Numbered from the stretch's first letter, positions 26,579-42,225 are shown. The stretch: DNA of 42,742 nt from a virus (IMGVR_UViG_3300038701_001426:1-42742); one strand, 5' to 3'. Numbers and translations are program-made. Notes: generated by a model not told the origin, from the sequence alone.

Positions 26579-27223
26579 ATGCTTTTAATGCCGGAATACG
26601 ACTCGTGTATGCACAAGTGGATCAAAGCCCGGCTGCGCGAGATCGGCAAAAAACAGAAAGACTTGGCGGCAGCCATGTCCCTGCCGCATACGAGGGTCAG
26701 CGAAATCATATCCGGCAAGCGCGCCGTCAGATCGCATGAGGCCGCAATCCTCGCCAGTTTTCTTGGCCTTAGCGGTGATGAAGTCCTGCAACGGCTCGGC
26801 GGCGAAATATCGGATGCAGAATTTTCGGTTGTGCGCCAACCAGTGATTCATGTTCCGTTAATATCGTGGGTACAGGCTGGAGAACTAGCAGAAATTAGCG
26901 ATCCGCTTCCCCCCGGAGACGCTGAAGAATGGGTAGCGGTGGCAAGTATGAAGGCGACACTGATTGCACTTCGCGTGCGGGGAACATCTATCAACCGGGT
27001 TGCACCGGACGGGGCTGTAATCATCGTCGATTACGCAGACACGGACCCCATCAGCGGAAAACTGTATGCATTTCGGAATGGCGACGGTGCTGGAGCGGTG
27101 AAGCGGTACAAGGCCAACCCGCCGCGTTTCGAGCCGGATTCAACCGATCCCCACGAGACGATTTTCCCTGACGAACACACGCACATTATAGGACGCGTCG
27201 AAACGGTTATTGTCTCGGTCTAA
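26579..27223 (+). CDS. S24/LexA-like phage repressor (CI-type)
   Basis: 214 aa from the first ATG; an internal ATG at 26609 gives 204 aa beginning MHKWIKARLREIGKKQ and is also plausible. No good ribosome site precedes either, so a leaderless message is possible. Residues about 12-70 are the HTH (KKQKDLAAAMSLPHTRVSEI). The C-terminal half is the self-cleavage domain: Ala-Gly in 'SWVQAGELAE' (cleavage point), catalytic Ser in 'VRGTSINRVAPDG', and Lys in 'GAGAVKRYK'. It maintains lysogeny and should be cleaved after RecA activation by DNA damage. Four matching operators flank the gene. Confidence 0.9.
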   Translation: MLLMPEYDSCMHKWIKARLREIGKKQKDLAAAMSLPHTRVSEIISGKRAVRSHEAAILASFLGLSGDEVLQRLGGEISDAEFSVVRQPVIHVPLISWVQAGELAEISDPLPPGDAEEWVAVASMKATLIALRVRGTSINRVAPDGAVIIVDYADTDPISGKLYAFRNGDGAGAVKRYKANPPRFEPDSTDPHETIFPDEHTHIIGRVETVIVSV

Positions 27224-29514: not shown

Positions 29515-29699
29515 GCGACACAGTAGCCGTAACCCGCGCATGGTTTGACGACACCATACACACGCCCGTGGAAACCCACGATACGCATTGGCGGCATTAC
29601 CACCGCATGAAACACATGGAGCGCCGCCTAGTCGCAATCGGGCGCGCCGACATTGTTGAAGAAGCGGACAGGTACGCAGATGAAAGGATGGGGAAATGA
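29511..29699 (+). CDS. 62-aa hypothetical protein
   Basis: His/Met-rich (HTPVETHDTHWRHYHRMKHM) helix followed by 'EEADRYADERMGK'. No motif. Overlaps the Rad52-like gene by 4 bp. Confidence 0.65.
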   Translation: MSDTVAVTRAWFDDTIHTPVETHDTHWRHYHRMKHMERRLVAIGRADIVEEADRYADERMGK

Positions 29700-30388
29700 G
29701 TTTCCAAAACGAACAGCTTGACATGCTCAACGCGCCGCTGAACAGGAACAACGTCAGGCAGCGCGAGCAGGGCCGGACGACGGTCTCTTACATCGAGGGC
29801 TGGCATGCCATCGCCGAAGCCAACCGGATATTCGGGTTTGATGGATGGACCCGCGAAACCGTCGATATCAACTGCGTTGCCGAAAACCCGCGCAAGATTG
29901 GCGAGGGCAAGGCATGGGAGAAAGACGGGTTCGGCGTGACCTACACGGCCAAAGTCAAGGTTACTGCCGGGGGCGTTGTTCGCGAAGGTGTCGGCGCGGG
30001 GCATGGGATCGATGCCGACCCCGGACAGGCGCACGAAAGCGCTATCAAGGAAGCTGAAACCGACGCAATGAAACGGGCGCTTATGACGTTCGGCAACCCC
30101 TTCGGTCTGGCGCTGTACGACAAGGAGAAATCGAACGTTAAAACGGACGCCGAAATCAACGCGCCCGCCCCCGCAACCAAAGATGAAATCTGCGCCGCGC
30201 TCGGTGCCTGCACGTCGCGCGATGAACTTGTCGCGACATGGAAGGCACACGCGCAACGCCTGAACCAGATGCAGCGCGATGCTCCCGACGACTATCACGC
30301 CTGCGTCGAGAAGAAAGACGAAATGAAAGCCGATCCTCTGATTGCTGGCGATATCGAACGCGAAGCCATACAGGGAGAAGCCGCATGA
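29696..30388 (+). CDS. Rad52-like single-strand annealing protein
   Basis: 230 aa. 'GRTTVSYIEGWHAIAEANRI' and 'FGFDGW', 'GVGAGHGIDADPGQAHESA', 'KEAETDAMKRALMTFGNPFG' are the core of the phage Rad52/Rad22 family. It coats and anneals ssDNA in phage recombination, forming rings. The C-terminal 80 residues are a helical tail for partner contacts. It opens the recombination block; no exonuclease partner was recognised next to it. Confidence 0.9.
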   Translation: MSFQNEQLDMLNAPLNRNNVRQREQGRTTVSYIEGWHAIAEANRIFGFDGWTRETVDINCVAENPRKIGEGKAWEKDGFGVTYTAKVKVTAGGVVREGVGAGHGIDADPGQAHESAIKEAETDAMKRALMTFGNPFGLALYDKEKSNVKTDAEINAPAPATKDEICAALGACTSRDELVATWKAHAQRLNQMQRDAPDDYHACVEKKDEMKADPLIAGDIEREAIQGEAA

Positions 30389-31134
30389 ATACGCAGATTG
30401 CCACCATTGGCGACAACAACCCGCCTACCCCGTTCGAGGAAATCTCGGAGAAGATCGAAGACCTGTACAATGAGGCCAAGCAATGGCTCGACGGCGATCC
30501 GGTGGATTCACAGGGACAGGCCGATGCGCTCAACACCCTCATCAATATGATCCGGGCGGCGGAAAAGGAAGCCGACGCGCTGCGGAAAGATGAGGTCAAG
30601 CCGTTCGATGAAGGCAAGGCCGAGGTTCAGGCCCGCTACAACCCGCTGATCGGAAAGACCAAGGCCGTGACCGGCAAAACGGTCCTCGCGCTCGATGTCG
30701 CCAAGAAGGCCCTGACGCCGTGGCTCGAAAAGCTGGATGCCGAAAAGCGCGAAGCCGAACGCATCGCCCGCGAGGAAGCCGAGAAAGCCCGCAAGGAAGC
30801 AGAACAGGCGTTCATCCTGTCAGAGAAGGACAACCTTGCAGAGCGCGAGGAAGCCGAACGCCGGGCCGCAGTGGCAAAACAGGCGGATATCAATGCCCGC
30901 GTTTCCGCCAAGGACAAGGCTCATGCCAAGGGTGGCACCGGCCGCGCTACCGGGCTACGGAGCGAGTGGCGGGCGGAAATCACAGACAAGCGCGAGTTTG
31001 CCCGGTGGATATGGACGAACCGCGAATCCGAAATGTCGGGCTGGCTGAACGAAATGGCCGGCAAGATTGTGAAGCAGAACCACGACCAGGATATCCCCGG
31101 CGTGAAAATCATTGAAGAAAGGAAGGCCGTGTAA
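30385..31134 (+). CDS. coiled-coil protein of the recombination block
   Basis: 249 aa from ATG 30385. The first 60 residues are small alpha/beta with 'DNNPPTPFEEISEKIEDLY'. A long charged coiled coil (about 100-190; EEAEKARKEAEQAFILSEK) follows, then a basic region (TGRATGLRSEWRAEITDKRE) and a C-terminal domain. This family regularly accompanies Rad52-like or Erf-like annealing genes in phages; function unknown, possibly an annealing cofactor. Confidence 0.7.
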   Translation: MNTQIATIGDNNPPTPFEEISEKIEDLYNEAKQWLDGDPVDSQGQADALNTLINMIRAAEKEADALRKDEVKPFDEGKAEVQARYNPLIGKTKAVTGKTVLALDVAKKALTPWLEKLDAEKREAERIAREEAEKARKEAEQAFILSEKDNLAEREEAERRAAVAKQADINARVSAKDKAHAKGGTGRATGLRSEWRAEITDKREFARWIWTNRESEMSGWLNEMAGKIVKQNHDQDIPGVKIIEERKAV

Positions 31135-35538: not shown

Positions 35539-35724
35539 ATGGGGAATGTAACGGATATCGATGAACACCGCCCGCACCGGGTTTTTGAGGCTATGTGCGT
35601 TGTCTGCGTTCATCGGTGGATAGCGGTGTCCCCGACAGAAACACCGCTAAAGAACTTCGAATGCCCCAAGTGCAAAAGCGTTGGGGCGACCATTAACACC
35701 GGACAGGAGATTGAAGATGCCTAA
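35539..35724 (+). CDS. cassette gene 1, copy A: small CxxC protein
   Basis: 61 aa from ATG 35539 (AGGAG upstream). 'MGNVTDIDEHRPHRVFEAMC' and two Cys pairs (CVVC, CPKC). Copy B lies at 39283-39465. Ribbon-like zinc protein. The stop overlaps the next start by 8 nt. Confidence 0.7.
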   Translation: MGNVTDIDEHRPHRVFEAMCVVCVHRWIAVSPTETPLKNFECPKCKSVGATINTGQEIEDA

Positions 35725-35920
35725 CACCGACCCGATGATGCAATTTTTCGCTTACGACCATTTGCCCGAACACCTGCAAGCGGTATCGCGCCCATATGGC
35801 GAACTGGCTGCCAGCGTGGTCGAGACGTTGCCGCGCAACCCCGAACGCACCGCAGCTTTGCGGAAATTACTGGAAAGCAAGGACTGCGCCGTTCGCTCTC
35901 AGCTCTACAAGGACGCCTGA
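35717..35920 (+). CDS. cassette gene 2, copy A: Acb2-like helical hairpin protein (candidate anti-CBASS)
   Basis: 67 aa. The pattern F-F-A-Y-x-H-L-P-x-x-L-Q-x-V-S ... LPRNPERTAALRKLLESKD is the helical-hairpin architecture associated with Acb2/Tad1-type phage proteins, which bind cyclic nucleotide signals to block CBASS or related defence. A conserved Tyr (FAY) is near residue 13 and a Lys/Arg cluster near 50. It is identical to copy B (39462) from residue 5 on. Function is inferred from the pattern; the ligand is unknown. Confidence 0.5.
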   Translation: MPNTDPMMQFFAYDHLPEHLQAVSRPYGELAASVVETLPRNPERTAALRKLLESKDCAVRSQLYKDA

Positions 35921-35922
35921 GC

Positions 35923-36159
35923 ATGTCAGCGGACATCATGCAGGAACTCGCCCGCGAACTCGATAAATCCCTCAACGGCGGCGCGAAGGCGACCGACCGC
36001 GAGAACGGTTTCGTTCTTCTGGTCTTTCCGTTCAACGCCCCGAAGGGAGCGCGGACCAATTATGTCAGCAACGGCCAGCGCGAGGACATCGTTACGGCGT
36101 TGAAAGAGATTGTCGCTCGGTTCGAAGGCGGCGTGATCGACACTGACACAATCCAGTAA
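35923..36159 (+). CDS. cassette gene 3, copy A: conserved small protein
   Basis: 78 aa. 'GFVLLVFPFNAPKGARTNYV' and 'VTALKEIVARFEGGVIDTDT' are shared with copy B (39668), with most differences elsewhere. Alpha/beta, unknown function, always third in the cassette. Confidence 0.7.
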   Translation: MSADIMQELARELDKSLNGGAKATDRENGFVLLVFPFNAPKGARTNYVSNGQREDIVTALKEIVARFEGGVIDTDTIQ

Positions 36160-36175
36160 ACGAGGGACCAAGCGG

Positions 36176-36502
36176 ATGAAGTGGATCAAGAGAAAACTGC
36201 GGATATGGCTGGAAATCGACGATGACGTGTCGAGGCTCGACCGCAACAACAGGCTTTTGAATGATGCCCTGGAAACAGCGCAGGCAACTGCACTGGATTG
36301 TCACTTTCGGGGCAACAGTCTGGTCATCGTCGCTTCGCGCCTGAACGGCGGGCATGTCCGGATCATCGAAACGCAGTTTGAGTCCGTTCGCGACATTGAG
36401 GAACGGCTTGGCGGGTTCGTCGCGCCGTTCGCCGTGATCGAGCCACGACAGCGCGCTAACGGTTCGCTTCGTGTGTTCGATATGCCCCACAACAGTTTTT
36501 AA
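36176..36502 (+). CDS. hypothetical early protein
   Basis: 108 aa. Basic start (MKWIKRKLRIWLEID), then alpha/beta (SLVIVASRLNGGHVRIIETQ). The start follows the recurring TAAACGAG junction. Unknown. Confidence 0.65.
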   Translation: MKWIKRKLRIWLEIDDDVSRLDRNNRLLNDALETAQATALDCHFRGNSLVIVASRLNGGHVRIIETQFESVRDIEERLGGFVAPFAVIEPRQRANGSLRVFDMPHNSF

Positions 36503-36514
36503 ACGAGCCGACAG

Positions 36515-36709
36515 ATGGACCAATCAGGCAGCAGAACGTTACCCCGAAGCGTCAAACAAACCTACGCGAACAAGATCGACGCGGAATTGTTGAACCTCGC
36601 GAAAGACGCCGCGCGGGCCGACCTCACTCAGTTGACCGTTTCCCTTCAACGGGCGCGGGTTCTGGCTAGGTCATACATGCACCCCGACGACCGGGGCGGG
36701 ATTTTATAG
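36515..36709 (+). CDS. hypothetical small protein
   Basis: 64 aa, helical (IDAELLNLAKDAARADLTQL). Follows a TAAACGAG junction. Unknown. Confidence 0.65.
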   Translation: MDQSGSRTLPRSVKQTYANKIDAELLNLAKDAARADLTQLTVSLQRARVLARSYMHPDDRGGIL

Positions 36710-36718
36710 GAGGGCTTT

Positions 36719-36907
36719 GTGGCACAGAAAAACACCCCGAAACGCTGGAAAGCGATAGTCGCTTTTCCATGCTATGCGCCTTGGTTGCCGATCACGCTTT
36801 TTGTTCTCTGCATGATCGGGATAGGTCGCGTCGGTGAATGGCTGGATGAGCGTATACCGACGCGGCTTGTTGGCTGGCCTTTACGAAACTGGATGTATCG
36901 CAAATAG
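36719..36907 (+). CDS. small membrane protein, paralogue of 21178-21390
   Basis: 62 aa starting at GTG (TAGGAGGGC upstream). 'NTPKRWKAIVAFPCYAPWLP' then a hydrophobic helix and 'RLVGWPLRNWMYRK'. The same protein type is encoded on the minus strand at 21178. Single-pass or hairpin inner-membrane peptide. Confidence 0.75.
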   Translation: MAQKNTPKRWKAIVAFPCYAPWLPITLFVLCMIGIGRVGEWLDERIPTRLVGWPLRNWMYRK

Positions 36908-36921
36908 GAGCGGGTAACGGG

Positions 36922-37122
36922 ATGAAGCAACGCATCGGAATCTTCCCCCATGCAGGGCTTATCGCCGCCGCGGCACTTGTCGCGGAAGGCGTTGAACTTC
37001 GCCCGGTTGATGAAAAAGACCCGCCAGCCAGCGGTGACGGCGGGTGCAAATACTGCGGCCGGGAATTTCAGACAGCCGAAGGATATCGATCGCACCTGCG
37101 GCGATATCACGGCGAAACGTAG
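36922..37122 (+). CDS. C2H2 zinc-finger protein
   Basis: 66 aa. One finger: 'CKYCGREFQTAEGYRSHLRRYH' in outline, C-x2-C ... H-x4-H. Helix before it is Ala-rich. Could bind DNA or a protein. A single classic finger in a phage early protein is not unusual. Confidence 0.75.
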   Translation: MKQRIGIFPHAGLIAAAALVAEGVELRPVDEKDPPASGDGGCKYCGREFQTAEGYRSHLRRYHGET

Positions 37123-37137
37123 GAGCGAGGTGACGGG

Positions 37138-37395
37138 ATGACGATGCAGTGGCCGAAAGGTGAAATGTGCAGCGGGTGCGCGGGCAGGAAAGGCACAGAG
37201 GCAAACCGAACACCGGAAACTGTGTCGGCGCTGCGCGAGTGCATCGAAACCCGCGAGCCATTCTATTGCCATGAGTCGGTCGCGAAGCCCGACCCAGACG
37301 GAACGGCATTTGATAACGCCGGCAATCCCTACAAGCGGTTGCCGGAAAACCATTATCGGCTTTGCCGCGCCTGGATGCGCGCAACGTCGGAATAG
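37138..37395 (+). CDS. zinc-binding small protein
   Basis: 85 aa. 'EMCSGCAGRKGTEANRTPET', 'PFYCHE' and 'RLCRAWM' provide four spaced Cys (plus His) in a set seen in small phage zinc proteins. The leader GGAGCGAGGTGACGGG recurs at 37820. Confidence 0.7.
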   Translation: MTMQWPKGEMCSGCAGRKGTEANRTPETVSALRECIETREPFYCHESVAKPDPDGTAFDNAGNPYKRLPENHYRLCRAWMRATSE

Positions 37396-37408
37396 CAGGA
37401 GGCCGAGG

Positions 37409-37621
37409 ATGGAAAAGACCTGTTTCGAAGACAACTGCCCTTATCGCGCGACCCCGCGACCGCCGGGGCGCCGCTGCGAAGTTTGTATGCCGCTCACACA
37501 CGCCAGCGGCGGGACGAATATATCTAAAGAATGGTGCATCAACGCTGCCAAGGCCGAGGGTGATGCAGAGATCGGGGCCGGTAGGCTGGCCGCTGATCCG
37601 ACCTTTGATGAATCCAACTAG
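37409..37621 (+). CDS. small Cys-containing protein
   Basis: 70 aa from ATG 37409. 'CFEDNCPYRATPRPPGRRCE' then 'VCMPLTH' and 'EWCINAAK': several Cys, helix at the end. Unknown. Confidence 0.6.
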   Translation: MEKTCFEDNCPYRATPRPPGRRCEVCMPLTHASGGTNISKEWCINAAKAEGDAEIGAGRLAADPTFDESN

Positions 37622-37632
37622 CCGAGCGTCGC

Positions 37633-37824
37633 ATGGGGAAGAAATTCGCATGGACCGCCGAGCAGATTACCGAGCATTACGAGGCCGGTTTCGTACCGGA
37701 AGACGACGACGATGACGATTTTGACAATGACCCCGCCAGCGAGTGCGGCCAGTTATCGGACGGCACCTGCATGATGGCCGGGACAGAATTTTGCGACTGG
37801 GAATGCCCCATTCGTGGGCAATGA
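37633..37824 (+). CDS. acidic Cys-rich protein
   Basis: 63 aa with a poly-Asp run (PEDDDDDDFDND) and a Cys-rich end (ASECGQLSDGTCMMAGTEFC). Strongly acidic small phage proteins sometimes mimic DNA; that is speculation here. Confidence 0.65.
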   Translation: MGKKFAWTAEQITEHYEAGFVPEDDDDDDFDNDPASECGQLSDGTCMMAGTEFCDWECPIRGQ

Positions 37825-37842
37825 ATGGAGCGAGGTGACGGG

Positions 37843-38040
37843 GTGGAAAAAGCGAAAGATTGGCGTGTCGATATTGACGATACCGGAGGCCCGCTAACCG
37901 GCTGGCCGAGTGTATGTAGCGAAACAGAGGACCGCTGCGTACTCCACGCGAAGGGCTTTAAGCAGGAGTTTTGGGATGGTCCGTCGCTACACGAGGCGAA
38001 GCAGATCGCGCAGCTTGTTGCAGATTTTATGAACCAATAG
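37843..38040 (+). CDS. hypothetical early protein
   Basis: 65 aa from GTG 37843, chosen because the preceding GGAGCGAGGTGACGGG matches the leader before the ATG at 37138. Residues 'AKDWRVDIDDTGGPLTGWPS' then a helix. Two Cys. Unknown. Confidence 0.6.
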   Translation: MEKAKDWRVDIDDTGGPLTGWPSVCSETEDRCVLHAKGFKQEFWDGPSLHEAKQIAQLVADFMNQ

Positions 38041-38056
38041 ACGAGGCTTTTGACGG

Positions 38057-38383
38057 ATGGTAACAGTCGATGAATTGATGGCCGAAATCAGGAATTCCAT
38101 GCGAGCCCCTGACTACATGGTACGGCCGCGCACGTCGCCGGCGCTGACACAGTTCGCGGGCATAGACGTGATCGAGTCCCATCACGCGACCAGCCACACG
38201 CACGACGCTTTCGAACCGATCCCGTATTCGCCGCACCGGTCGAAACGGATCTGGAAAAAGCTATGGAAGCGCCATCGGCAGACCTGGCACCCGGTCCGCG
38301 AGCCGTGTGCCTACATGTTCTACGGAAAGATGATAATGCACCCGGAACTGGTCTGTGCAATGCGCGCCCAGCTTCCCAACTGA
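38057..38383 (+). CDS. hypothetical early protein
   Basis: 108 aa. Helix (MVTVDELMAEIRNSM), His-rich middle (ESHHATSHTHD), basic 'KRIWKKLWKRHRQTW'. Could bind nucleic acid. Unknown. Confidence 0.65.
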   Translation: MVTVDELMAEIRNSMRAPDYMVRPRTSPALTQFAGIDVIESHHATSHTHDAFEPIPYSPHRSKRIWKKLWKRHRQTWHPVREPCAYMFYGKMIMHPELVCAMRAQLPN

Positions 38384-38403
38384 TCGAGCCGACAGGAGGA
38401 ATT

Positions 38404-38571
38404 ATGACCGAAGACGAAAGAACACTTTTGCTGACCGTCGCCCGGATTTTGCGGGCGCGCATCCCAGAGTTCGCGCCGTCATATCAGGACGATGATCTGG
38501 CCGCGCTGCGAGAAGCGCTTGCGCCGTTCGATCCGAGTGACGCCGAACCCGTCAACGAAGAATCCAGATAG
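38404..38571 (+). CDS. small helical protein
   Basis: 55 aa from ATG 38404, preceded by AGGAGGAATT. 'ERTLLLTVARILRARIPEFA' then an acidic end. Unknown. Confidence 0.65.
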   Translation: MTEDERTLLLTVARILRARIPEFAPSYQDDDLAALREALAPFDPSDAEPVNEESR

Positions 38572-38588
38572 ATCGAGGGAATAGAGAC

Positions 38589-38843
38589 ATGACAGCAATG
38601 ACGCCAATTTCCGACGACCATCCGCTGAAACAGGCGTGGGACGCCTATAAGGCGACCGATGATTATGCGAACTCGAAAAATTGGGCGATGCAAATATCCC
38701 CTCTTGTTCAAGCGTCGGACCCCGACGCTGAGGCAAAGCGCAGGTTCGATATCATGCCGCGCGAACAGCGGGAGCGACACGTTGAAGGCTCCCTATGGGC
38801 TGCCTTTATGGAAGGCTATCGCTCCGCTGAAACGAAATCATAA
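38589..38843 (+). CDS. conserved small early protein
   Basis: 84 aa. 'HPLKQAWDAYKATDDYANSK' and 'VEGSLWAAFMEGYRSAE' are the two conserved parts of a small protein family common in phages. Unknown function. Confidence 0.7.
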   Translation: MTAMTPISDDHPLKQAWDAYKATDDYANSKNWAMQISPLVQASDPDAEAKRRFDIMPREQRERHVEGSLWAAFMEGYRSAETKS

Positions 38844-38851
38844 ACGAGCGA

Positions 38852-39088
38852 ATGATGGGATTCTTTACCCCTCGCAAAAAGCTGCCGCAGTACGCCGTTA
38901 CGCTCGAACTGAACGGTAACCACGGCTATCGAACAGAGCCAGAGTTTCAGGTGGAAGACGGGACGGCAACCGTCCACGTTCGCGCCAGGTCATGGAATGA
39001 CGCCTACAAGCAGGCAACGAAACCCGATGTGCTTGGGAAACTGAAATTCTGGACGGCCCGTGTCGTTCGGATCGAGCGGGACCACTAG
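38852..39088 (+). CDS. hypothetical early protein
   Basis: 78 aa, beta-rich (YAVTLELNGNHGYRTEPEFQ). Start follows TAAACGAGCGA. Unknown. Confidence 0.65.
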   Translation: MMGFFTPRKKLPQYAVTLELNGNHGYRTEPEFQVEDGTATVHVRARSWNDAYKQATKPDVLGKLKFWTARVVRIERDH

Positions 39089-39099
39089 GGAGGAACCAG

Positions 39100-39273
39100 A
39101 TGGATATCCCGAGATACGCACCGGAAGCCATTCAAACGCTCGCAGCATCCCGCTGGACTCTCATGCTGGCAAAGATCTTCGGCGAGAAAATCATCGGCGA
39201 GGACAGAGGTTGCGTCGCGGTGATGTACCGATGGCGCGGCAAGACGTACCTGACCGAATTTGTGAGATCGTAG
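39100..39273 (+). CDS. 57-aa small protein
   Basis: ATG 39100 with GGGAGGAACC upstream. Helix then beta hairpin (GCVAVMYRWRGKTYLTEF). Unknown. Confidence 0.6.
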   Translation: MDIPRYAPEAIQTLAASRWTLMLAKIFGEKIIGEDRGCVAVMYRWRGKTYLTEFVRS

Positions 39274-39282
39274 GAGCGCGAC

Positions 39283-39465
39283 ATGGGGAATGTGACGAAT
39301 ATCGATGAACACCGCCCGCACCGGGTTTTCGAGGCAATCTGCGTCGATTGCTGCCATCGGTGGATCGCCGTCACACCCTCAGAAACAACACTGAAAGAAC
39401 TCGAATGTGCCGGATGCAGCCGCACCGGCACGGTCATCAACACCGGACAGGAGATAGAGACATGA
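39283..39465 (+). CDS. cassette gene 1, copy B: small CxxC protein
   Basis: 60 aa. Same opening as copy A (MGNVTNIDEHRPHRVFEAIC) with CVDC and CAGC pairs. The metal-site spacing is kept; loop residues differ. Overlaps the Acb2-like gene by 4 bp. Confidence 0.7.
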   Translation: MGNVTNIDEHRPHRVFEAICVDCCHRWIAVTPSETTLKELECAGCSRTGTVINTGQEIET

Positions 39466-39665
39466 CCGACAACGACCCAATGATGCAGTTTTTCGCTTAC
39501 GACCATCTGCCCGAACACCTGCAAGCGGTATCACGCCCGTATGGGGAACTCGCTGCCAGCGTGGTTGAAACGCTGCCGCGTAACCCCGAACGAACCGCCG
39601 CCCTGCGTAAATTGCTGGAAAGCAAAGACTGCGCCGTTCGCTCGCAGCTTTACAAGGACGCCTGA
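39462..39665 (+). CDS. cassette gene 2, copy B: Acb2-like helical hairpin protein
   Basis: 67 aa. Identical to copy A (35717) apart from residues 2-4, though about 20 synonymous differences separate the DNA. See copy A for the reasoning on anti-CBASS function. Both copies use their own ribosome site and sit in the same three-gene context. Confidence 0.5.
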   Translation: MTDNDPMMQFFAYDHLPEHLQAVSRPYGELAASVVETLPRNPERTAALRKLLESKDCAVRSQLYKDA

Positions 39666-39667
39666 GC

Positions 39668-39904
39668 ATGTCGGATGACCTCATGCAAAGTCTTGCCGGT
39701 GGGATAAACAAAATCCTGAACGGCGAGGCCAAGGCCGCCGACCGAAAAAACGGTTTCGTCTTGCTGACATTCCCATTCAATGCGCCGGAAGGCGCTCGGA
39801 CCAACTACGTCAGCAATGCCAACCGCGACGACATCATTGTTGCGCTGAAAGAGATCGTCGCACGGTTCGAAGGCCGCGCAATCGACACCGAAACAATCCA
39901 GTAA
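39668..39904 (+). CDS. cassette gene 3, copy B
   Basis: 78 aa, about three quarters identical to copy A (35923): 'GFVLLTFPFNAPEGARTNYV', 'ALKEIVARFEGRAIDTETIQ'. Unknown function. Confidence 0.7.
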   Translation: MSDDLMQSLAGGINKILNGEAKAADRKNGFVLLTFPFNAPEGARTNYVSNANRDDIIVALKEIVARFEGRAIDTETIQ

Positions 39905-40131: not shown

Positions 40132-40410
40132 TTGGCTAAACGGCAACCGATATCATGGGCTGTGCAGGAATCCGGCTACAACCGGAGAACCCTGCAAGCC
40201 CTTGCGGCTGCCGGAAAAATACCCGGTGCCACGAAGCCCGCAGGACTATGGGTGTTTGACGTGGTAAAGTTCCGTGAGTGGATCAAGGCAGGGGAACCGA
40301 CGCAATGCCGGACGATAGAAACATTTTCCAGCGCGAGGGGATATGGTGGTATCAGCGAAAAATCAACGGCCAGCGAATACGACGAAGCCTACGAACGCGC
40401 TCTGTTATAG
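40132..40410 (+). CDS. excisionase-like HTH protein
   Basis: 92 aa starting at TTG. Residues 5-50 form an HTH ('VQESGYNRRTLQALAAAGKI') followed by a wing-like 'LWVFDVVKFREWIKAGE', as in MerR/Xis-like excisionases. The C-terminus overlaps the integrase start by 106 bp in another frame. Expected to bind attP and direct excision. TTG start probably limits its level. Confidence 0.7.
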   Translation: MAKRQPISWAVQESGYNRRTLQALAAAGKIPGATKPAGLWVFDVVKFREWIKAGEPTQCRTIETFSSARGYGGISEKSTASEYDEAYERALL

Positions 40411-41321
40411 AGGCCCGCAAACTCCGCGACGATCTCAACCGCCAGTACGACCGGTTTGCATTCGACGGAACCGAGCGGGTGACATGGAAACGCGCCGTCA
40501 CGGAATGGGCCAGACACGCGCCCTCACGCCTCAAGCCCCGATCGGTAGACCGGTACAAGATGTCCCTGCGGAAAATGCGCCCTATCCTGGACGACAAGTA
40601 CCTCGACGAAATCACCCGCAAGGTGATCGCCCGCGTTGCTCACCGGGAAGGGGTGTCGAACGCCACCCGCAAGCGCGATTTAACCGCCGTCTCGGACGTT
40701 CTCCGATTCGCCTGTGCGCAGGGCTGGCTTGATGAGAACGTTGCCCGCACATACGACCGGACGACCATCAGGGAGCGCCGTAGCCCGTTTGTGGAGCCAT
40801 CGGAGGATGACATCAAATGCCTGAAGGAAGCCGGGCCGGAAACATGGGCGGCGGCAATGGATTTTGCCCGCGCCAGCGGTATGCGGCAAGAGGAGATATT
40901 CAGCCTCGAATACACGCAGTTCCGGGACGACGGCATACAGATTACATCGACCAAGACCAACTCCCCGCGCATGGTGCCGTGGATGCCGGGCATGAGAGAG
41001 GCGATAGACAGCCTGCCGGCCCATATCGAAAGCCGGTTCGTGTTCTGGCATGGCAACGGCCAGCGGTATCACAACGTCGCATCGCAGTTCCTTCGGATCC
41101 GCAAACAGGCAAACAGGGACCGCGAGCGCCCTATCACGATCACGTTCCACGGCTTCCGGCACCTGTTCGCCATCGAATACCTGCGGAAACACGGACGGGA
41201 CCGCCTGCCGACGTTATCGCTTATCCTGGGGCATACCAGCGTAAAAACGACCGAGGGGTATCTCGGCTACGGGGCCACAATAGGGGCCACAGTAGACAGG
41301 GTGGATTTTGGATCACAGTGA
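40305..41321 (+). CDS. tyrosine integrase
   Basis: 338 aa from ATG 40305. Arg I in 'ARASGMRQEEIFSL', His-x-x-Arg in 'FHGFRHLFA', and 'LILGHTSVKTTEGYLGY' with the nucleophilic Tyr at the end. N-terminal arm-binding and core-binding domains occupy about residues 1-150. Catalyses recombination between attP and the host tRNA-Ser gene. The last 15 residues include GATIGAT, encoded by arm-site DNA (41271-41290). Confidence 0.93.
   Translation: MPDDRNIFQREGIWWYQRKINGQRIRRSLRTRSVIEARKLRDDLNRQYDRFAFDGTERVTWKRAVTEWARHAPSRLKPRSVDRYKMSLRKMRPILDDKYLDEITRKVIARVAHREGVSNATRKRDLTAVSDVLRFACAQGWLDENVARTYDRTTIRERRSPFVEPSEDDIKCLKEAGPETWAAAMDFARASGMRQEEIFSLEYTQFRDDGIQITSTKTNSPRMVPWMPGMREAIDSLPAHIESRFVFWHGNGQRYHNVASQFLRIRKQANRDRERPITITFHGFRHLFAIEYLRKHGRDRLPTLSLILGHTSVKTTEGYLGYGATIGATVDRVDFGSQ
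41271..41290 (+). repeat. att arm-site pair 1
   Basis: GGGGCCAC at 41271-41278 and 41283-41290: a tandem pair with 12-bp period, inside the 3' end of the integrase gene. Same spacing as pairs 2 and 3. Likely arm-type integrase binding sites. Confidence 0.75.
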
Positions 41322-41531: not shown

Positions 41532-41587
41532 GAGGGATGTGAAACCCCTAAACATCTGGCATAGCGCCGGATAATCACCATATACAA

Positions 41588-41607
41588 GGGGCCACAAAAA
41601 GGGCCAC
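41588..41607 (+). repeat. att arm-site pair 2
   Basis: GGGGCCAC (41588-41595) and AGGGCCAC (41600-41607), same 12-bp period. Located in the intergenic part left of the core. Confidence 0.75.
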
Positions 41608-41666
41608 GCGTATACTGGTTTCAGGCTATATTCAGGAGGGGAATTCATGCAGAAAACGGCAGAATT

Positions 41667-41746
41667 TGGCGGAGAGAGAGGGATTCGAACCCTCGTCAGA
41701 ACTTACGCCCTGAACTGGTTTAGCAAACCAATATGCCATCCGGGCA
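41667..41746 (-). other. attP core: 3' part of tRNA-Ser(GCU)
   Basis: Minus strand carries CCA end (41669-41667), discriminator and acceptor 3' strand (41677-41670), T-arm GAGGG-TTCGAAT-CCCTC (41694-41678), long variable arm and an anticodon arm with GCT (41724-41722). The 5' acceptor strand (GGAGAGA) is absent, so this is not a complete tRNA. It is the identity segment that would replace the host gene's 3' end. It continues to the D-arm edge near 41746. Core attachment site by inference. Confidence 0.85.
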
Positions 41747-41769
41747 GAAGCCCTTTATATGCGCCGTTT

Positions 41770-42225
41770 ATGGCGGTTTTCCGCCGGTTTCGGGCCGCGC
41801 TGATTGCGCCAATAGCGTATGCAGGGCTGTTTTGCGGGGCCACAATAGGGGCCACAGCGGCGGACATGGCGAAAGTCCGGCAAATCAATGCCGGGGTCAA
41901 CCGATCGATCCATTACCGGCCCGATTACGGCGGGGATAAATGGTCGCTCACCGGGCGGTATGGCGATTGCGAGGATTACGCGCTGCGGAAAGTCATGATT
42001 CTGGCACGGCATGGCATCAAGGCCGAGATCGGCTATTATTTCCTGCCGGGTGGAATCGGCCACGCGATTGCAATCGTCGATGGCATGGCGCTTGATAACA
42101 GGTCAGACCGAATCGATACTGTTCCGACCCTGTACTGGCGCGGCGTTTTGAGAGGGAATGCGGTATGGACAACCCACGCGATGGGAAAGCCCGCGCCGGT
42201 TGTGAAATTTCGTGACGTGGAGTGA
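41770..42225 (+). CDS. transglutaminase-like cysteine peptidase (BTLCP-like), exported
   Basis: 151 aa from ATG 41770; a longer ORF start runs through the att core and is rejected. Residues 1-30 form a signal peptide (FRAALIAPIAYAGLFCGATI). The mature part has the family signature 'GDCEDYALRKVMIL' (Cys), 'GHAIAIVDG' (His) and a following Asp. BTLCP proteins in phages cut peptides or amides; cell-envelope action (lysis or entry) is likely given the signal peptide. The signal sequence's GATIGAT is encoded by arm-site pair 3. Confidence 0.8.
   Translation: MAVFRRFRAALIAPIAYAGLFCGATIGATAADMAKVRQINAGVNRSIHYRPDYGGDKWSLTGRYGDCEDYALRKVMILARHGIKAEIGYYFLPGGIGHAIAIVDGMALDNRSDRIDTVPTLYWRGVLRGNAVWTTHAMGKPAPVVKFRDVE
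41836..41855 (+). repeat. att arm-site pair 3
   Basis: GGGGCCAC at 41836-41843 and 41848-41855. The 20-bp unit and 3 nt around it are the same as pair 1. It lies on the other side of the core (P' arm), inside the peptidase signal sequence. Confidence 0.75.

What the first reader, a model, noticed from the sequence alone, without database searches (positions are those of the whole stretch)
35717..39665. Duplicated candidate anti-CBASS (Acb2-like) cassette
Two copies of a three-gene cassette 3.7 kb apart. The central protein is identical in 64 of 67 residues, while its DNA differs at about 20 silent positions; the flanking proteins diverge more. This is strong selection on the middle protein. 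Its hairpin pattern resembles cyclic-nucleotide sponges, and the two neighbours (a CxxC protein and a 78-aa protein) may act with it.
Basis: partly seen in the sequence, partly recalled or inferred. Interest (0 to 1): 0.65.

Follow-up and report, generated by a model that had tools for sequence, protein, structure and literature searches.

The report
Distant Acb2-like phage protein, two copies
A prophage carries two copies of a tiny three-gene block whose middle gene belongs to a very large, unnamed phage protein family that is a distant relative of the proteins phages use to soak up bacterial immune alarm molecules, but whose binding pocket looks different and whose activity nobody appears to have tested.

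Summary
Window 35539-36159 and 39283-39904 are two copies of a CxxC / 67-aa / 78-aa operon, 3.7 kb apart. The 67-aa proteins match in 64/67 residues over 20 silent changes (dN/dS about 0.03, against 0.16-0.21 for the neighbours).

The 67-aa protein (PHROG 1761/5120, no function, no Pfam) occurs in 315 phage records and at least 518 IMG/VR stretches. AlphaFold2 gives a short helix plus two long antiparallel helices (pLDDT 94), the architecture described for Acb2. A profile of Pfam PF24729 (Acb2/Tad1 hairpin) relatives ranks this family above all but one of about 8,500 unrelated ORFs, the exception being a genuine hairpin protein. Profile-profile comparison gives E 2e-6 (0/100 shuffles), as good as that profile gives for Acb2 itself.

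Direct matches to Acb2 fail: no PF24729 hit, not above shuffles against Acb2, no Acb2 in the PDB fold search. Of three pocket positions, the aromatic is kept and two are replaced by other near-invariant residues.

So it is a distant, divergent branch of the hairpin superfamily, plausibly a nucleotide sponge with another ligand. Activity is untested. The three genes do not travel together. One relative is virion-associated.

The parts
35539..35724 (+). Copy A, gene 1: 61-aa zinc-ribbon-like CxxC protein
   Evidence: ORF and two CxxC pairs; weak sub-threshold zinc-ribbon hits only; 73% identical to copy B
35717..35920 (+). Copy A, gene 2: 67-aa helical-hairpin protein (PHROG 1761/5120), distant relative of the Acb2/Tad1 hairpin
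   Evidence: phrog_1761 E 2.5e-29
35923..36159 (+). Copy A, gene 3: 78-aa protein, phrog_35296, unknown function
39283..39465 (+). Copy B, gene 1: 60-aa CxxC protein
39462..39665 (+). Copy B, gene 2: 67-aa helical-hairpin protein (64/67 identical to copy A)
39668..39904 (+). Copy B, gene 3: 78-aa protein, phrog_35296
40278..41321 (+). Integrase (context: the cassettes lie between recombination genes and the integrase of a prophage)
   Evidence: phrog_1 E 3e-45; tRNA-Ser at 41671-41757 on the minus strand

Best explanation
The 67-aa protein is a phage-encoded helical hairpin of the Acb2/Tad1 hairpin superfamily, in a large branch not covered by the current Pfam model. Most likely it works as Acb2 does: copies pack helix against helix into a small oligomer and hold a nucleotide-type immune signal in pockets between protomers, blunting a signalling defence without enzymatic activity. 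Because the pocket positions differ from Acb2 (aromatic kept, Lys replaced by Ser, Thr replaced by an invariant Arg, and the MWAN segment replaced by an invariant KDxAVR), the ligand is probably not the standard Acb2 set or is bound differently. A sponge acts stoichiometrically, so keeping two near-identical copies would raise its dose. Shown here: duplication, selection, predicted monomer fold, remote homology to the hairpin family. Inferred: oligomer, ligand, counter-defence role, dosage effect.
For: AlphaFold2 on a 67-row family alignment gives H6-11, H18-37, H42-66, pLDDT 94. After its own family, the BFVD fold neighbours are dominated by proteins named Acb2/Tad1 hairpin (14 of the top 50). 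An HMM built only from canonical hairpin proteins, run on 8,606 ORFs of 80 loci, ranks one genuine hairpin protein first and then 58 members of this family before the first unrelated ORF. hhalign: family versus hairpin set E 2e-6, prob 89, 0/100 column shuffles reach it; hairpin set versus characterised Acb2 set E 1.1e-6, prob 91. phrog_1454, which also matches T4 Acb2 (E 7e-4), matches 41 of 49 records searched, in nearly all cases at the family gene. One phage (L203) has this gene directly upstream of a canonical PF24729 gene. Extreme conservation of charged helix-2 residues R49, K50, E53, K55, D56, R60. Location in the early region of a prophage among small genes.
Against: No Pfam PF24729 match at any threshold in the window; the best of 69 relatives is E 0.12. 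Direct hhalign to the Acb2 set is no better than shuffles (E 0.1; 13/100). The PDB fold search finds no Acb2, whereas a canonical hairpin model run the same way finds T4 Acb2 first. Pocket positions equivalent to PaMx33 K26 and T4 T68 are not conserved. A divergent roseophage member was found in purified virions (PMC4193335). No clear link to CBASS in host genomes: 5 of 23 with a SMODS domain above cut-off, with no baseline measured.
Confidence: 0.5

Rival explanations
1. It is a small virion-associated or assembly helper protein built on the same helical-hairpin fold, with no ligand-binding role.
For: gp28 of roseophage RPP1 was identified by mass spectrometry in CsCl-purified virions (PMC4193335), and orf28 of the roseophage record FR682616, annotated 'structural protein', is a family member. 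In several phages the gene sits among head genes, for example next to the portal gene in Vibrio phage martha and between head-morphogenesis and coat genes in Acinetobacter phage Ab105-2phi.
Against: The roseophage member lacks two near-invariant residues (D56 to N, R60 to Y), so it may not be typical. In the window, in Mycobacterium phage Phayonce and in roseophages the gene lies outside the head/tail block, and its position varies freely. Known Acb2 of JBD67 also lies in the middle of its genome, next to a PF07030 gene, so position does not decide.
Confidence: 0.18
2. It is a hairpin-superfamily protein that has left the sponge role, for example a regulator or adaptor that binds a conserved host or phage protein through the invariant face of helix 2.
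For: Two of three Acb2 pocket positions are replaced; helix 2 is more uniformly conserved than an arms-race protein would suggest. It is fused to other domains in some phages: a CxxCxGxG zinc domain in Ochrobactrum phage OH, a Walker-A-like stretch in Erwinia jumbo phages.
Against: Fused forms are a minority; the retained aromatic and the adjacency to a canonical hairpin gene in L203 point back to the sponge family.
Confidence: 0.22
3. The three genes form one functional anti-defence module.
For: Overlapping and near-contiguous genes, duplicated exactly as a unit. In Microcystis phage Mwe-JY08 a CxxC relative lies next to the middle gene.
Against: Relatives of the CxxC protein are in only 8 phage records and of the 78-aa protein in 7, against 315 for the middle protein. 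The IMG/VR scan finds none for the CxxC protein and 4 for the 78-aa protein, none of those beside the middle gene.
Confidence: 0.07

Closest known systems
Pfam PF24729 Acb2_Tad1_hairpin (canonical short hairpin proteins such as Paenibacillus phage Sitara gp67)
   Same: Short N-terminal helix plus long two-helix hairpin; FxY motif before helix 1; LP-x-x-x-[ER]-[KR] turn; A-[LI]-x-x-L-x-x-A in helix 2; hhalign E 2e-6
   Different: Does not reach the Pfam model; helix 1 about four residues shorter; MWAN segment replaced by KDxAVR; T/N positions replaced by invariant R49-K50
Acb2 (T4 Vs.4, PaMx33-type p26; PDB 7uq2, 8h2j, 8ixz)
   Same: Predicted monomer architecture; aromatic at the position of T4 Y8, whose alanine mutant is described as binding-deficient (PMC12657230); small solo phage protein
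   Different: No direct sequence or PDB fold match; position of K26 is Ser, position of T4 T68 is Arg; shorter linker between the long helices
Acb2 homolog 43 (PDB 9ptq)
   Same: Profile of this family aligns in the same register across helix 1 and helix 2 (pairwise hhalign E 0.001)
   Different: Not significant in a whole-PDB search (E 0.73); has the canonical TKLEEAMFFA helix 2
Tad1
   Same: C-terminal two-helix hairpin of the same Pfam family
   Different: Tad1 has an N-terminal beta-sheet; this protein is 67 aa and all-helical

Membership tests
Pfam PF24729 (Acb2/Tad1 hairpin) | Score above the curated cut-off of 27 bits | tested here: not met
   No match for either copy; 1 of 69 relatives at E 0.12
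Acb2/Tad1 hairpin superfamily (remote homology) | Profile similarity beyond chance and beyond other helical ORFs | tested here: met
   hhalign E 2e-6, 0/100 shuffles; 58 family members rank before the first unrelated ORF among 8,606 ORFs; phrog_1454 bridge
Acb2 | Short N-terminal helix plus two long antiparallel helices | tested here: met
   AlphaFold2 model, pLDDT 94; architecture of Acb2 as described in PMC12043709
Acb2 | Recognisable fold match to a solved Acb2 structure | tested here: not met
   No Acb2 chain within E 10, while the positive control finds 7uq2 first
Acb2 | Direct profile similarity to characterised Acb2 proteins | tested here: not met
   E 0.1, 13 of 100 shuffles as good
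Acb2 | Pocket residues: aromatic (T4 Y8), Lys (PaMx33 K26), Thr (T4 T68) | tested here: inconclusive
   Aromatic kept in 86 of 95 sequences; Lys position is Ser in 90; Thr position is Arg in 95. Role of Y8 and T68 from PMC12657230; role of K26 from memory
Acb2 | Hexamer that binds cyclic di- and trinucleotides and blocks CBASS | not testable with these tools
   No multimer prediction or binding assay available
Tad1 | N-terminal beta-sheet plus hairpin | tested here: not met
   All-helical 67-aa model

The most novel reading that the evidence does not exclude
This family is a separate, very widespread branch of hairpin sponges whose invariant R49/K50/K55/D56/R60 surface holds a nucleotide immune signal that Acb2 and Tad1 do not bind, and phages sometimes duplicate it to raise the dose.
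Probability: 0.28. Interest if true: 0.75.

Novelty: new variant of a known kind. Interest (0 to 1): 0.52.

Why it matters
No database consulted here gives it a function. Linking it to the hairpin superfamily gives a concrete, cheap test. If it is a sponge, its changed pocket predicts a signal that current Acb2/Tad1 assays would miss. If it is not, it shows what else this tiny fold can do.

Tried and rejected
Sequence search of the PDB with the single protein: only chance haloacid dehalogenase hits. PDB fold search: generic helical hairpins only. NCBIfam: only a weak DPS hit, far below cut-off. Co-travel of the three genes: rejected. A general CxxC partner upstream of the middle gene: 4 of 73 distinct members have an adjacent upstream ORF with two CxxC motifs (two of the four are the same ORF) and 1 is a fusion, so rejected as a rule. 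CBASS in host genomes: SMODS domain over cut-off in 5 of 23, no baseline, so no inference. Duplication as a family trait: only 2 of 45 family records have two copies in the first scan set. Gene conversion as the cause of the identical proteins: unlikely, because 20 silent differences remain. Literature search for the family by PHROG or Pfam number: nothing.

Full report
Where it is. The window is a whole IMG/VR record of 42,742 bases. Tail, connector and terminase genes lie on the minus strand (1-15 kb); a repressor (26579-27223), a recombination protein (29696-30388), an exonuclease (30238-31134) and an integrase (40278-41321) lie on the plus strand, with a tRNA-Ser at 41671-41757. So it is a temperate siphovirus-like phage or prophage, and the finding lies in the run of small genes between the recombination genes and the integrase.

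The observation. Two copies of a three-gene block are present at 35539-36159 and 39283-39904. The duplication covers exactly the three genes. The 67-aa proteins are identical from residue 5 to the end. The DNA has 20 changes in synonymous codons and 4 in non-synonymous codons; dN/dS is about 0.03 for the middle gene and 0.16-0.21 for the neighbours.

What the middle protein is. It belongs to PHROG 1761 (E 1e-29) and 5120, both without function, and matches no Pfam or NCBIfam model at a meaningful score. Helix 2, E-R-T-x-A-L-R-K-L-L-E-S-K-D-x-A-V-R, is almost invariant across 95 diverse sequences.

Fold. AlphaFold2 on the family alignment gives a short helix 6-11 and long helices 18-37 and 42-66, pLDDT 94, matching the description of the Acb2 protomer (PMC12043709). 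In BFVD the first hits are the family itself; after these, 14 of the 50 best are named Acb2/Tad1 hairpin. In the PDB no Acb2 chain is found and nothing is significant. As a positive control, a canonical PF24729 protein (L222) modelled the same way finds T4 Acb2 with cGAMP first (E 0.09, prob 0.99). So the fold is similar, but further from Acb2 than canonical members are.

Homology. T4 Acb2 (Vs.4) matches PF24729 (E 7e-20) and phrog_1454 (E 7e-4). phrog_1454 matches 41 of 49 records searched, in nearly all cases at the family gene. A profile of canonical hairpin proteins compared with the profile of this family gives E 2e-6, prob 89, with 0 of 100 column shuffles as good and no match for the reversed profile; the same hairpin profile against the characterised Acb2 set gives E 1.1e-6. 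Searching 8,606 ORFs from 80 loci with the hairpin HMM puts a genuine hairpin protein first, then 58 members of this family before the first unrelated ORF. These members are related to one another, so they count as one family, but the family as a whole outranks everything else. Direct comparison with Acb2 is not significant. The link is therefore a chain: this family to canonical hairpin to Acb2.

Pocket. Through that chain, T4 Y8 (alanine mutant described as binding-deficient, PMC12657230) corresponds to residue 13, aromatic in 86 of 95. PaMx33 K26 (importance from memory) corresponds to S24. T4 T68 (T68M is described there as lowering affinity) corresponds to R49, invariant. The canonical MWAN becomes KDxAV. 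The protein keeps the scaffold and one aromatic but has a differently charged surface.

Context. In L203 the family gene is directly followed by a canonical PF24729 gene. Positions in phage genomes vary: near the portal gene, among head genes, after the holin, near the genome end, in the early region here. Acb2 of JBD67 also sits in the middle of its genome, before a PF07030 gene. The flanking genes of the window cassette are rare and do not follow the middle gene; only Mwe-JY08 has a CxxC relative next to it. Two-copy records are 2 of 45.

A caution. gp28 of roseophage RPP1 was found in purified virions (PMC4193335). orf28 of the roseophage record FR682616, annotated 'structural protein' and with the same numbering, is a family member. 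That sequence lacks two residues that are otherwise nearly invariant, but it is the only experimental datum on the family that I found, and it does not point to counter-defence.

Conclusion. I give about 0.85 to superfamily homology (inference from the chain above), 0.5 to a sponge-like function and 0.3 to a standard CBASS signal as the ligand. The last two are inferences.

Noticed in passing
L203:2771-3213 (IMGVR_UViG_3300024224_000018): The family gene and a canonical PF24729 hairpin gene lie side by side, possibly two sponges with different ligands.
   Followed up: partly
L052:1-500 and 1742-2240: Independent duplication of the same family: the flanks are 95-100% identical while the gene itself is only 80-88% identical, with changes mostly silent (dN/dS about 0.05). 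This is the reverse of what simple divergence gives and suggests allele replacement between identical flanks.
   Followed up: partly
L332:2492-2737 (Brevibacterium phage 3C gp27); L078:4980-5225; L318:5001-5210: Insertions between the two long helices. In Brevibacterium phages two annotated 51-nt direct repeats lie inside the gene, so the loop seems to vary by repeat number.
   Followed up: no
L334:2258-2686 (Erwinia phage pEa_SNUABM_39); L219:765-1133 (Ochrobactrum phage OH): Fused forms: a Walker-A-like GPVGVGKS segment, or a CxxCxGxG zinc domain, N-terminal to the hairpin.
   Followed up: partly
window 41270-41292, 41587-41609, 41835-41857: A 23-nt direct repeat (GGGGCCACAATAGGGGCCACAG type), two copies identical and one 78%, around the integrase end and the tRNA-Ser; these could be integrase arm-binding sites.
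   Followed up: no
L214:1477-2686 (Gordonia phage FlyingTortilla); L082:2956-4624 (Acinetobacter phage ZZ1): A canonical hairpin gene in one phage and a member of this family in the other lie next to, or one gene away from, an RNA ligase gene.
   Followed up: no
L170:1459-1638 (G027:18218-18343): A hairpin gene that matches PF24729 only over its first part and looks truncated or frameshifted, about 3 kb from an intact member of this family.
   Followed up: no
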